Of a stretch of DNA of 64,000 nucleotides, positions 1,194 to 28,406 are shown one piece after another. This DNA is from Candidatus Altimarinota bacterium. Lineage in GTDB: Bacteria > Patescibacteriota > Gracilibacteria > BD1-5 > UBA6164. The position numbers and the translations under genes were made by a program. The stretch covers positions 1 to 64,000 of the forward strand of contig JAHDCR010000001.1 in assembly GCA_020629795.1 (NCBI GenBank), written 5' to 3'. Under the pieces are notes generated by a model. The model worked only from the letters and a program-made list of their open reading frames with translations. It did not search any database and was not told the origin of the DNA. Position 1 is the stretch's first letter; the number at the start of each line of letters is the position of its first letter.

Positions 1194-2303
1194 TTATCAG
1201 AATATTTTTTCAAAAACTCATTTTTTAGAGTTTACATTGAGTTTCTTTTCTTTTGCAAGATTTTCATAGAGGTCTCGCTCAGATTTAGAAAGCTTTGTTG
1301 GAGTTGGAATATGGATATGTATGAGTAAATCTCACTTTGCATCTCTCTCGATATGTTTTACACCGTCTCAAGAAATTTTTAAAATACTTTCTCACTGCGT
1401 TCCGGCATCAATAGAGATAGTTCGCTTCCCAATAACTGGAATATTAACTTCTTTTTTTGTACCAAGTACTGCTTCTATAAATTCTATCTCTAGGTCATAG
1501 TGTAAATCTACACCATCTCTTGTGAGTCATTTCTCCTGCGTATTTACATGAAATCTCACATAAAGATCTCAAGATGTCTTTGTGCCTACACCAGCATTTC
1601 CCTCTCCAGTAAGTTTAATCACCATCCCGTCATCGATACCAGCAGGAATATCTATATCAAGTTTTTGTTTTTTGAGGACTCGTTTTTCTCCGTTACACTC
1701 GCTGCAAATATCTTCAAACTCTTCTCCAGAACCATTACAATCAGGACACGTTCGTGTTTGCTGAATAACTCCAAAAGGACTTTGTGAAGTCTGAGTTACT
1801 TGACCATGTCAGTTACAGGTAGTACAAGTTTTTTTGTTGCTTCAACCAGCTCCATCACAACTATCACAATACTCTCTTTTATTGAATTCTAAAGTATCCT
1901 TTCATCCGTAAATACTGGTTTTTAAATCTATCGTAATGTCATATTCTAGATCTTCACCTCTTCTCTCACTGCTACGTCTAGCTCATCCTCTACTCTGACC
2001 TCAAAATCCTCCACCGAAAAATGAAGAAAAAATATCACCCAGGTCTTCTGCCTGGAATCCTCATCCTCAAAATGGATTTCATCCTCCACCAGCACTCCCA
2101 AAAGTATCATAGTTTTGTTTTTTTCCTGGATCAGAAAGCGTCCCATACGCTTCTCAAATTTCTTTAAATTTTGCTTCAGCCTCTTTGTCTCCCTGATTTC
2201 TATCAGGATGATACTGCATTGCAAGCTTTCTATATGCTTTTTTTATTTCATCACTACTTGCTCATTTTTGTAGACCAAGTATCTCGTAATAATCTCTTGC
2301 CAT
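1194..2303 (-). CDS. dnaJ: Chaperone DnaJ (Hsp40)
   Basis: A 369-residue type I J-protein that stimulates the ATPase of DnaK and delivers unfolded clients. The J domain (residues 1-70) starts [10 protein letters not shown] and has the HPD tripeptide (YHPDR). A Gly/Phe-rich linker follows, then a zinc-binding region with four CxxCxGxG-type repeats (for example [30 protein letters not shown]), then the C-terminal substrate-binding domains. In CTTCNGHG the first glycine is encoded by TGA, direct evidence for code 25. The length matches the family. No dnaK or grpE is next to it. The gene ends at TAA just before a strong hairpin. Confidence 0.97.
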
Positions 2304-2377: not shown

Positions 2378-2551
2378 TTATAAATGACCAAATGCTTTAT
2401 CGATATCTCACGACTGCATATTTCATTTTCTAATTCTATCTGCTGCAGCTTTAACAGCTGCGCATGTTCAGTATATCTCTAGTCTTCAATCTTTTAATAA
2501 AACATTTCATCCTCACTCAACACTTGTATCTGTTTGTGTATGTTGAGACAT
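2378..2551 (-). CDS. Small hypothetical protein, 57 residues
   Basis: The frame runs from ATG at 2551 to TAA with six TGA codons read as Gly. The product has a Gly-rich turn (VEGGGN), a segment LLKDGRLEIYG, then a basic helix containing AAVKAAADRIRKGN. I do not recognise a family; the pattern would fit a small nucleic-acid-binding or ribosome-associated protein, but that is a guess. It lies 74 bases upstream of dnaJ, separated by a hairpin, and its 5' end overlaps the upstream extension of the PriA fragment on the other strand. Confidence 0.5.
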
Positions 2552-3622
2552 TTTTTCAGAGCTTGTCATAAAAATCATTTACAATATAATGTTACAGAAC
2601 ACTCTATAGTACTGACCCTTATTCGTCAAATGTTTTTAACGGTAAATTTAGCACAGAACCAGTCAAAAATATCAAATTATATATCTGATACTCTTTTAGA
2701 GCATATAGATATTACGCTTGCAAAAGGGGAAAAAGTCATGCTCTACCTCAATAAACGTGGGTCTCACTCCAGTCTGATTTGTGAAGATTGTCAGTACTTA
2801 TATGCATGTCCAAACTGTGATGTGAGTCTCTCAGTTCACTGAAATCCAGATCACCTCAGGTGCCATATTTGTAACAATGCATTTAATATCCCAAAACAGT
2901 GCTCTGAGTGCCACAAGATTAATCTCAAACCAGTATGAGTCGGAACCCAGCAAATAGAGAGTCTTATGAAAAATCAATACAGCGAAAAATCTGTCTACAG
3001 ATTTGATAGTGATTCTATGAAAAACATTTCGAGCAAACGAGAGGCCCTATGAAACCTTGATTCCGCAGATATTATTATCGGTACCAAGATGCTTACCACA
3101 GGGTTTAATTTTGAGAAAATATGACTCATTTGTATCATACTCGTCGAATCAGAGCTCTCCTATCCAAGCTATGATGCAGCTGAAAAAGCTTATACTAATC
3201 TTAGGCAACTCATAGGCCGATGAAATAGAAAATCTCAAGAGACTACTATTATTCTCCAAACTTTTATTCCTAAAAATCCATTAGTACAGCAGCTTACCAA
3301 TAATAATTTTAAAGATTTTTTTCAGGAGACACTCAAAGAACGCAAAGAATTTGACTATCCTCCATATAGGCAAATGGTGACGCTCGAATATCGGCATAAA
3401 GATAGTAAAAAATCTCTTGCTTATACCCAAAAACTGTTAGACACACTTAGAGAGTTTGACCCGGAAGAAGAATATATATTTCTGAGAGGAAGCTCTACAT
3501 TTCGAAAAAATAACACACACCATGCAACGCTCATTGTAAAATGAAAAAATATCAGGAAGCTTCTTAAAAACATTGAAAAGACGATTATTTCTCAGAGCGC
3601 TTTGAGTGTAATATTTCATTAA
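2534..3622 (+). pseudogene. priA: Primosomal protein N' (PriA), 5'-truncated
   Basis: PriA restarts stalled replication forks as a 3'-5' helicase of about 700 residues. Only the C-terminal half is here. Visible are helicase lobe 2 starting at LYLNKRGSHSSLICEDC, the zinc-binding cysteine pairs (CEDC, CPNC, CHIC, CSEC), motif V-like text (IIIGTKMLTTGFNFEK), motif VI-like RQLIGRG and the C-terminal domain. The 3' DNA-binding domain, winged helix, Walker A (GKT) and DEAH motifs are absent. The open frame starts at TTG 2534; an ATG at 2630 is another possible start. Upstream is occupied by opposite-strand genes. It is either a remnant or a stand-alone fragment whose partner lies elsewhere. The frame has no TAA/TAG break, so it may still be translated. 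Confidence 0.8.
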
Positions 3623-3785: not shown

Positions 3786-4913
3786 ATGAAATTCGAAATA
3801 AACACAAAACTTCTTCAAAAAGGTCTCAGTGTCGTATCTCACGCTACTGCTGGGATCACCACTACTCCAATCCTCGAAAACATACTTATAAAAGTAAACT
3901 ATAAACATATCGTCCTTACCGCAAATAACCTAGAAATGGCAATAGAATATATGCTGGATGATGTAAAAGTACTTTCTGAGTGAGCTTTTTCTATCCCAAG
4001 TAAACTCTTTGGAAGTTATATCGGTTTACTCCAAGACGATACGGTGAGCATAGAGCTCAAAGGTGGAGACGCACTAGAAATCAAAACAGAAAGTGGAAAT
4101 ACAAAAATAAAGGGGATCCCTGCTGAGGATTTCCCAGTTATTCCAGGAGTAAAAGAAGAGCTTTCTCTCTCACTGAAATGAGAAGTCGTTCGAAGATCAA
4201 TTGAAAAAACTCTCTTCTCAAGTGCTGAAGGTAATATTCGTCCAACACTTGCAGGACTTTTCGTAAATATCACTGGATCAGAGGCAACATTTGCCTCAAC
4301 TGACAGTTTTAGACTCTCAGAGTACAAGACTATTTTAGATACCCCAAATGAAGTAGGTTTTTCTCAAATCATCCCATCTAAAACATGTTTTGAAATTAAG
4401 AGTATTATTTCTGATGATGATAACGTAAAAATAATCTCTGGAGAAAACCAAATAGCGTTTTTCTTTGGAAATGTAAAAATGTACTCAAGACTGCTGAATG
4501 GTAAGTTCCCTGATTACACAAACTTTTTCCCGAGCTGATATGCTACAAAATGAGTTATCAACAGAGCTGATCTCATGGGAGCACTGAAAAAAATTAACCT
4601 CATATCTCGAGAAAATAACTACTCAATAAAAATGAGTTTCAGCAGTGAAAACGGGATTCTCTTGGAAACATCACAAACACAAATTGGTGAAGGTGAAATT
4701 GGACTTGTATGAAGCGTAGAATGAGAGGATGCAATAATCGGCATCAACTCAACATATTTCCTCGAAGCACTCGGAGCAATTGAAACAACTCATATCTCCC
4801 TCCAATTTGAATCTCCTCTCGCACCTATCCTCCTGCTCCCTGTTCCAGACGAGTGAGCAAAAAAAGCCCTCCCAGGACAATTCAGACATATTATCATGCC
4901 ACTTAAGATATAA
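3786..4913 (+). CDS. dnaN: DNA polymerase III subunit beta (sliding clamp)
   Basis: A 375-residue clamp that encircles DNA and tethers the replicative polymerase. The N-terminus is typical (MKFEINTKLLQKGLSVVSHA), including the TTPILENILI segment, and the C-terminus ends HIIMPLKI, close to the usual MPxR/L ending that forms the partner-binding pocket. Length and three-repeat organisation fit the family. Several TGA codons are read as Gly. ATG 3786 is preceded by a pyrimidine-rich sequence without a Shine-Dalgarno motif. It is not next to dnaA or gyrB here. Confidence 0.96.
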
Positions 4914-5009: not shown

Positions 5010-5639
5010 TTGGATAAAATATGATCATGAGGTTTTCATGATGTTTATAGTGGAAACTGAAACTATGTTAGAAAATTTCCTAACAAAACTAATAAGTCTC
5101 CATTAACATTTCAACAAGCAGCAACTTCTCTAGCTATTCACCAACAACTATTTTGAGATTTTTGTCCTCCTACAAAAGTCGTTGACACTGAAAATGGTTA
5201 CTGCATTATTCAAAAGAAAATTAATTGAAGATTAATATGTGAAATACCTCAGAAAGAAATTGAAAATAAAACATTAGAAGATTTAACAGCTTTTGTAAAA
5301 GCCCTTTCAAATTCATTATTACAATGAAGGATACCAGATTACTATTGAATTCAGGCTGAACCATTTGAATGGAAAATATCTTGAAGAAATACATTAACTA
5401 GACTAGTTGAAAAAATAAAACTCTTGCCAGGTTTATGGATTTTTTATAAAAATATATTTAAATCAAGCAATCTAATGGTAGCTGATGATTGAAAAATATA
5501 TCTCATAGACAATGTTGATAATCAAATTGCTAATATAAATCCGAAAATTTGACCTGGTATTTTAATTCGACACGCACTTACTGCGAATTACATATTAGAT
5601 ATATATATAAAGTTGAGATGAAAAAATAAAAATCCCTAA
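5010..5639 (+). CDS. Kinase-fold protein (aminoglycoside phosphotransferase / protein-kinase-like), putative
   Basis: About 209 residues. The N-terminus has a glycine-rich-loop-like sequence (LDKIGSGGFHDVYSG) followed by VRKFP, which could supply the ATP-binding lysine. Near the C-terminus, ADDGKIYLIDNVDNQ resembles the metal-binding D-x-G or hydrophobic-D strand of kinase-like phosphotransferases. The catalytic loop is not clearly recognisable. Both YrbL-like and APH-like families fit. Start TTG 5010 is chosen because no ATG lies between the upstream stop and the glycine loop; it is uncertain. The stop codon is inside the terminator stem. Confidence 0.45.
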
Positions 5640-28327: not shown

Positions 28328-28406
28328 TGGAGCGGGGGACCAGGTTTGAACTGGCACACCCAAGGGTTGAAGCCTTAGTACACTCACTCTTTTATGTTAC
28401 CCCCGC
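28328..28406 (-). tRNA. tRNA-Gly (UCA), reads UGA as glycine
   Basis: 79 bases including an encoded CCA. Acceptor stem GCGGGGG/CCCCCGC is perfect. The T arm is GCCAG-TTCAAAC-CTGGT. The anticodon arm TAAGG-CTTCAAC-CCTTG has a 7-base loop with U33 and A37; the anticodon at 28370-28368 is UCA, which pairs with UGA. The variable loop is 5 bases, so this is not tRNA-Sec. Bacterial glycine identity elements G1-C72, C2-G71, U73 and C35 are present. The D arm is unusual: only a short ACA/UGU stem fits and the usual GG pair of the D loop is missing. This matches the reassigned UGA codon seen throughout the window. Confidence 0.93.

What the first reader, a model, noticed from the sequence alone, without database searches (positions are those of the whole stretch)
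2534..3622. PriA without its helicase lobe 1
All motifs of the ATP-binding half are missing although the C-terminal half is intact and uninterrupted. The residues before the first clear lobe 2 motif may still match the PriA linker, so a deletion boundary near 2534 is likely. A genome keeping only half of PriA would be unusual.
Basis: seen in the sequence. Interest (0 to 1): 0.5.

Follow-up and report, generated by a model that had tools for sequence, protein, structure and literature searches.

The report
PriA helicase split between two genes
In a group of tiny bacteria that read the TGA stop codon as glycine, the replication-restart helicase PriA is encoded by two distant genes, one per helicase lobe, and this window holds one of them; in sister families the ATP-using parts of both halves have decayed together.

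Summary
It is neither a relic nor an assembly error. The N-terminal half (3' DNA-binding domain plus ATP-binding lobe 1, motifs intact) is an open gene on another contig, after dnaX; no full-length priA was found. In the family, 37 of 48 genomes show both halves, never in one frame; the three with both on one contig have them about 25, 229 and 534 kb apart. The break lies in the linker between the lobes. TGA most likely encodes Gly (a UCA-anticodon tRNA lies in this window), so standard-code annotation breaks both genes. Of 34 split genomes in which both halves were examined, 23 keep Walker A, DExH and motifs V and VI, 11 have lost all four, none is mixed: expected if two unlinked genes build one ATP site, though this rests on few independent events. 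Most likely a two-subunit PriA; sister families keep split, ATPase-dead halves, like the Deinococcus pseudohelicase but in two pieces. Complex formation and activity are inferred, not shown.

The parts
2630..3622 (+). priA-C: C-terminal half of PriA (helicase lobe 2, CRR zinc ribbon, CTD), 330 aa with TGA=Gly
   Evidence: TIGR00595 172-493, E 8e-76; start by comparison with relatives; AlphaFold2 mean pLDDT 89.8; nine best Foldseek matches in the PDB are PriA chains
   Evidence: outside the PriA match; relatives start at Met just before [VI][ND]L
2780..2911 (+). CRR: eight cysteines (residues 51, 54, 60, 63, 78, 81, 91, 94)
   Evidence: all eight invariant in the 31 C-halves aligned; Pfam Zn_ribbon_PriA
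3080..3103 (+). helicase motif V (GTKMLTTG)
   Evidence: kept in 38 of 38 f1 C-halves examined, in 0 of 11 f3, 0 of 2 f2, 0 of 4 f13
3215..3229 (+). helicase motif VI (GRGNR); by recall of SF2 helicases it contacts ATP bound by lobe 1
   Evidence: kept in 38 of 38 f1 C-halves examined, in 0 of 11 f3, 0 of 2 f2, 0 of 4 f13
3786..4913 (+). dnaN (sliding clamp), downstream neighbour in most relatives
   Evidence: TIGR00663, 247 bits, cut-off 138; downstream on the same strand in 22 of 30 C-half loci, on the opposite strand in 1 more
1194..2303 (-). dnaJ, divergent neighbour
   Evidence: NF008035, 366 bits, cut-off 338; same order in 8 other C-half loci
28328..28406 (-). tRNA with anticodon UCA (ARAGORN calls it SeC); presumed glycine tRNA that reads TGA

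Best explanation
priA has been split into two unlinked genes at the hinge between the two RecA-like lobes. PriA-N (315 aa, after dnaX on another contig) carries the 3' DNA-binding domain and ATP-binding lobe 1; PriA-C (330 aa, this window, before dnaN) carries lobe 2, the zinc ribbon and the C-terminal domain. Shown: both are open genes, found once each in the genome, conserved over the family and under purifying selection, and together hold each helicase motif once. Inferred: without any splicing they associate into a two-subunit PriA whose ATP site forms between the subunits, which recognises abandoned forks and reloads DnaB. In sister families both halves persist without the ATP site, so there PriA would be a split loader without motor.
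For: Own genome: two strong PriA matches, one per half; the weaker ones are other helicases. N-half: Pfam PriA_3primeBD and DEAD over cut-off; best NCBIfam models are PriA (E down to 2e-70), none over its full-length cut-off; P-loop, DEEHD, SGTP present. Family: 43 of 48 genomes with the C-half, 38 with the N-half, 37 both, never in one frame. Single-contig genome G035: N-half beside dnaX, C-half beside dnaN, about 534 kb apart. Synteny: dnaX then N-half in 18 of 21, C-half then dnaN in 22 of 30. Motifs: 23 intact/intact, 11 lost/lost, 0 mixed of 34 split genomes with both halves examined. On E. coli PriA (8fak_H) the two profiles cover 188-378 and 397-661. C-half fold is PriA, TMq 0.79 to 6dgd. 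pN/pS 0.22-0.40 (C, 10 pairs) and 0.29-0.40 (N, 3 pairs) with synonymous sites near saturation.
Against: No direct evidence that the halves bind each other; no complex could be predicted here. Six family genomes have the C-half but no N-half was found (G005, G007, G009, G017, G033, G036), two of them rated 99% complete: gaps or real losses. The motif concordance rests on few events: 3 independent contrasts on the whole tree, 2 among split rows; concordant in nearly all pairings, p 0.25 and 0.5. dS was calculable for only 2 of 10 C pairs (dN/dS 0.09, 0.14) and no N pair; pN/pS of both halves is mostly above that of dnaN (0.10-0.16) and dnaJ (0.18-0.24).
Confidence: 0.85

Rival explanations
1. 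The two halves no longer act together: PriA-C became a stand-alone ssDNA-pore or DnaB-loading protein, PriA-N a separate fork-binding ATPase.
For: Separate loci; six genomes in which only C was found; in the E. coli cryo-EM structure CRR, HD2 and CTD, all in PriA-C, frame the ssDNA pore (PMC10175261, passages).
Against: Motifs I/II in N and V/VI in C are kept or lost together in 34 of 34 split genomes examined, although few independent events lie behind it; a lone half would have no clear reason to keep half an ATP site.
Confidence: 0.1
2. The halves are joined into one chain by trans-splicing (split intein or intron).
For: The break lies between conserved domains, as split inteins allow.
Against: f1 N-halves stop within a few residues of the end of lobe 1 (LLEKY and the like), f1 C-halves start with Met at lobe 2; no intein-like addition is seen on either side (by eye; no intein or intron search was run).
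Confidence: 0.02
3. Remnant or assembly artefact: a broken priA in one genome.
For: Read by the standard code both halves are full of stops.
Against: Same split in 37 of 48 family genomes, same neighbours, TGA read as an amino acid with a UCA tRNA, low pN/pS.
Confidence: 0.02

Closest known systems
Escherichia coli PriA (8fak, 6dcr) and the PriA chains 6dgd, 4nl4
   Same: Same domains in the same order across the two halves: 3'BD, lobe 1, lobe 2 with CRR, CTD; all helicase motifs compared are present
   Different: Two genes at distant loci instead of one. By the Pfam spans the 3'BD ends at residue 104 and lobe 1 begins at 136, leaving no room for a winged helix; some single-chain relatives of the class are equally short there (L110)
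Deinococcus radiodurans PriA pseudohelicase (PMC4504706; passages including most of the abstract)
   Same: Sister families f2, f3, f13 have lost motifs I and II; that paper reports a PriA without ATPase and helicase activity that still binds fork DNA and shows evidence of DnaB binding
   Different: There one protein with substituted motifs; here two genes, the P-loop stretch is gone and motifs V and VI are lost too. The window's own family keeps all motifs
Naturally split genes such as the two-subunit reverse gyrase of Nanoarchaeum equitans (recalled, not looked up)
   Same: Gene fission at a domain boundary with both products kept
   Different: Here the cut falls between the two RecA-like lobes, so the ATP site itself is divided between two proteins

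Membership tests
PriA (replication restart helicase), as the pair | PriA-specific profile match | tested here: met
   C-half 256 bits over the TIGR00595 cut-off of 230; N-half 183 bits on 1-162 of 509, below it as it holds a third of the profile
PriA (replication restart helicase), as the pair | 3' DNA-binding domain | tested here: met
   Pfam PriA_3primeBD 33.5 bits, cut-off 22.7, in the N-half
PriA (replication restart helicase), as the pair | Walker A and DExH (motifs I, II) | tested here: met
   21 of 21 f1 N-halves examined
PriA (replication restart helicase), as the pair | cysteine-rich region with eight Cys | tested here: met
   invariant in 31 aligned C-halves
PriA (replication restart helicase), as the pair | motifs V and VI | tested here: met
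   38 of 38 f1 C-halves examined
PriA (replication restart helicase), as the pair | single polypeptide | tested here: not met
   separate loci; so it is a variant in gene structure, while all sequence features of the family are met by the pair
PriA (replication restart helicase), as the pair | fork-dependent ATPase, DnaB reloading | not testable with these tools
   needs proteins
PriA pseudohelicase (sister families f2, f3, f13) | PriA homology with lost motifs I and II | tested here: met
   0 of 22 f3, 0 of 1 f2, 0 of 4 f13 N-halves keep Walker A or DExH; the f3 profile hits only PriA chains in the PDB; nine best fold matches of the f3 model are PriA
PriA pseudohelicase (the window's own pair) | lost motifs I and II | tested here: not met
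   kept in 21 of 21 f1 N-halves

The most novel reading that the evidence does not exclude
A two-subunit superfamily 2 helicase whose ATP site is assembled in trans is a gate on replication restart: PriA-N, encoded beside the clamp loader gene (dnaX), reads the fork, and PriA-C, encoded beside the clamp gene (dnaN), brings the ssDNA pore; the motor exists only where both meet. The same split let sister lineages drop the motor from both genes and keep a pure loader.
Probability: 0.2. Interest if true: 0.8.

Novelty: new variant of a known kind. Interest (0 to 1): 0.6.

Why it matters
PriA is the central bacterial replication-restart factor and is known as one chain. A stable, family-wide split between the two lobes is a natural experiment: it makes it testable whether lobe 2 with CRR and CTD can load DnaB alone, whether the motor is needed, and how two lobes of one helicase find each other. 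It also warns that genomes with TGA=Gly hide such genes when read by the standard code.

Tried and rejected
Deletion or relic of a single priA: rejected, the other half is open and relatives share the split. Assembly break near 2500: rejected. N-half in the family genomes that lacked a match: sought with two profiles. With the f1 profile, G043 (N-half at a contig start, already matched) and G038 (last 49 positions at a contig start) have pieces; G005, G007, G009, G010, G011, G017 and G033 show only the stretch around 135-268 that RecG and Mfd also match; G020 and G036 nothing. The f3 profile found nothing in 12 genomes, a run without a positive control.

Split PriA elsewhere in the phylum: in 143 genomes at least 90% complete, 76 had a PriA match at E 1e-20. 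G251 and G260 looked divided but lie at contig ends. G307 has an N-type match in a 225-aa frame beside a 408-aa frame with the rest, on one contig; not followed. Weak matches and divided genes below that threshold were not looked for.

Number of fissions: the tree (short search, SH-aLRT support only) puts f1, f2 and f3 in one clade (100); f13 falls elsewhere on a very long branch, but holding it with them gives a better likelihood (p-AU 0.715); all split rows as one clade is not rejected (p-AU 0.286). So one to four fissions remain possible. The N-half of G084 ends earlier in the linker than those of f1, a hint of independent events. f5 and f11 rest on one genome each. The f13 N-half rests on profile comparison only (hhalign E 8.5e-21 from 4 sequences; 26 of 32 genomes) and its 3'BD was not recognised. 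The TGA count for the C part of G088 was out of register and is not used.

Papers: PriA with Gracilibacteria (1 paper, passages seen, unrelated); split-PriA phrases (0); Absconditabacteria with primosomal protein (0); Gracilibacteria with gene fission (0); PriA/Patescibacteria/replication restart (20 of 212 listed, none with Patescibacteria); split helicase and gene fission terms (5, none on this). The library lacks most subscription journals, so this shows only that it was not found there.

Full report
The observation. Window 2534-3622 (+) encodes PriA from lobe 2 onwards. Six TGA codons lie within the match, and the frame is open only if TGA is an amino acid. The match is TIGR00595 172-493 of 509, E 8e-76, 256 bits as a protein. 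The likely start is ATG 2630, by comparison with relatives, nearly all of which show Met a few residues before [VI][ND]L. The 330-aa protein gives an AlphaFold2 model of mean pLDDT 89.8; its nine best matches among solved structures are PriA chains, TMq 0.79 for 6dgd.

The genetic code. Of 18 TGA codons in the two halves of the own genome, Gly is the commonest residue of the single-chain, code-11 relatives at 8 (N-half residues 161, 177, 202, 227, 234, 302; C-half 103 and 305), among them C-half 103 (Gly in 32 of 32), N-half 234 (31 of 32) and N-half 161 inside the P-loop (21 rows; the others are mostly proteins that have lost the P-loop). Trp is commonest at one (N-half 108, 20 rows), and nine fall at positions where other residues are commonest. 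The window holds a tRNA with anticodon UCA at 28328-28406 (-). Together this fits table 25 (SR1 and Gracilibacteria). The nearest named records are 'Candidatus Gracilibacteria' MAGs, best 74% identity over the whole C-half (the own record may be left out there).

The other half. The same genome carries the missing half at G000:C9 11290-12237 (L002 1045-1992), inside a 144-kb contig and directly after dnaX (dnaX TIGR02397 386 bits). It has the 3'BD and lobe 1 with GVTGSGKT, DEEHD and SGTP, and stops at LLEKFSD. The N-half profile finds PriA chains first in the PDB, then RecG and Mfd; the C-half profile finds only PriA. On E. coli PriA (8fak_H) they cover 188-378 and 397-661, so the break lies between the lobes. 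The other four matches of the own genome to the PriA profile are Mfd (two places of one gene), RecG and a frame that looks like UvrB (by eye).

The family. Among 48 genomes of the family, 43 show the C-half, 38 the N-half, 37 both, 6 only C, 1 only N, 4 neither. In no genome do they share a frame. Three have both on one contig: 24.9 kb (G045), 229 kb (G031) and, in the single-contig G035, 534 kb apart; in the other 34 they lie on different contigs. Of 30 C-half loci, 22 have dnaN downstream on the same strand, 1 on the opposite strand, 7 none in view (2 of these end at the contig end just after the C-half); of 21 N-half loci, 18 have dnaX upstream on the same strand. pN/pS is 0.22-0.40 for C (10 pairs) and 0.29-0.40 for N (3 pairs), with synonymous sites near saturation; dnaN gives 0.10-0.16 and dnaJ 0.18-0.24 (6 pairs each). 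So both halves are under purifying selection, weaker than on dnaN.

Sister families. In the same order, 2 of 2 f2 and 25 of 27 f3 genomes have a place that matches the 3'BD end of the N-half profile but not its P-loop; in the 23 such loci read as proteins a second matching stretch near the end of lobe 1 follows in the same frame. In f13 of the same class 26 of 32 genomes show a match to the end of lobe 1 only. The C-half is found in 2 of 2 f2 and 25 of 27 f3 genomes. The f3 N-half profile hits only PriA chains in the PDB, its model (pLDDT 89.6) has PriA as its nine best matches, and it aligns with the intact N-half profile along its length (E 3e-43); f13 aligns at E 8.5e-21. Motif states in the loci fetched: Walker A 21 of 21 in f1, 0 of 22 in f3, 0 of 1 in f2, 0 of 4 in f13; motif VI 38 of 38, 0 of 11, 0 of 2, 0 of 4; split genomes with both halves examined: 23 intact/intact (21 f1, G078, G084), 11 lost/lost (9 f3, 1 f2, 1 f13), none mixed. 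The zinc-ribbon cysteines are kept in the f2, f3 and f13 C-halves aligned. Single-chain relatives show the same coupling within one protein: 21 intact, 10 lost, 2 mixed of 33. On the tree this counts few events: 3 independent contrasts (2 among split rows); in nearly all of 200 pairings all are concordant, never opposite; p 0.25 and 0.5.

How it probably works. In the E. coli structure CRR, HD2 and CTD frame the pore that encloses lagging-strand ssDNA, and a DnaB-loading figure uses ATPase-site K230A variants (PMC10175261, passages). All pore domains are in PriA-C; fork reading (3'BD) and ATP binding are in PriA-N. The simplest reading is that the halves dock through the lobe interface and form one PriA. 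The window's family keeps the motor; sisters have lost it, and there the pair would be a loader like the Deinococcus pseudohelicase, which binds forks and, by native gels, DnaB (PMC4504706, passages). Association and activity are inferred.

Origin. On the PriA tree f1, f2 and f3 form one clade (SH-aLRT 100), f1 95, f3 94. One clade with f13 is favoured in likelihood; one clade with f5 and f11 too is not rejected. The PriA frames of f5 (G078) and f11 (G084) hold no TGA, and G088 has a single-chain PriA with 27 TGA, so the code change and the split need not go together.

Verdict. A new variant of a known enzyme, conserved over a family, with a clean experimental test.

Noticed in passing
window 28328-28406 (-): tRNA gene with anticodon UCA, called SeC by ARAGORN; the only tRNA it found in the window and likely the TGA-reading glycine tRNA.
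   Followed up: partly
L127-L137 (single-chain PriA of G117, G181, G191, G079, G130, G116, G138, G227, G230, G099, G195): Single-chain PriA proteins of the same class that have lost Walker A and motif VI: pseudohelicase-like PriA in four families (f6, f7, f17, f22).
   Followed up: partly
L057 / L080 (G088): A full-length PriA frame with 27 TGA codons: a TGA-reading lineage whose PriA is not split.
   Followed up: partly
phylum sample: 67 of 143 phylum genomes at least 90% complete show no PriA match at E 1e-20; PriA may be lost or beyond recognition in many of them.
   Followed up: no
window 5010-5639 (+) and L002 1982-2692 (-): Two proteins that match each other weakly (E 6e-6); the second lies beside priA-N and has no family match, the first lies after dnaN and was not searched.
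   Followed up: no
window 2378-2578 (-): 66-aa open frame divergent from priA-C without a family match above cut-off.
   Followed up: no
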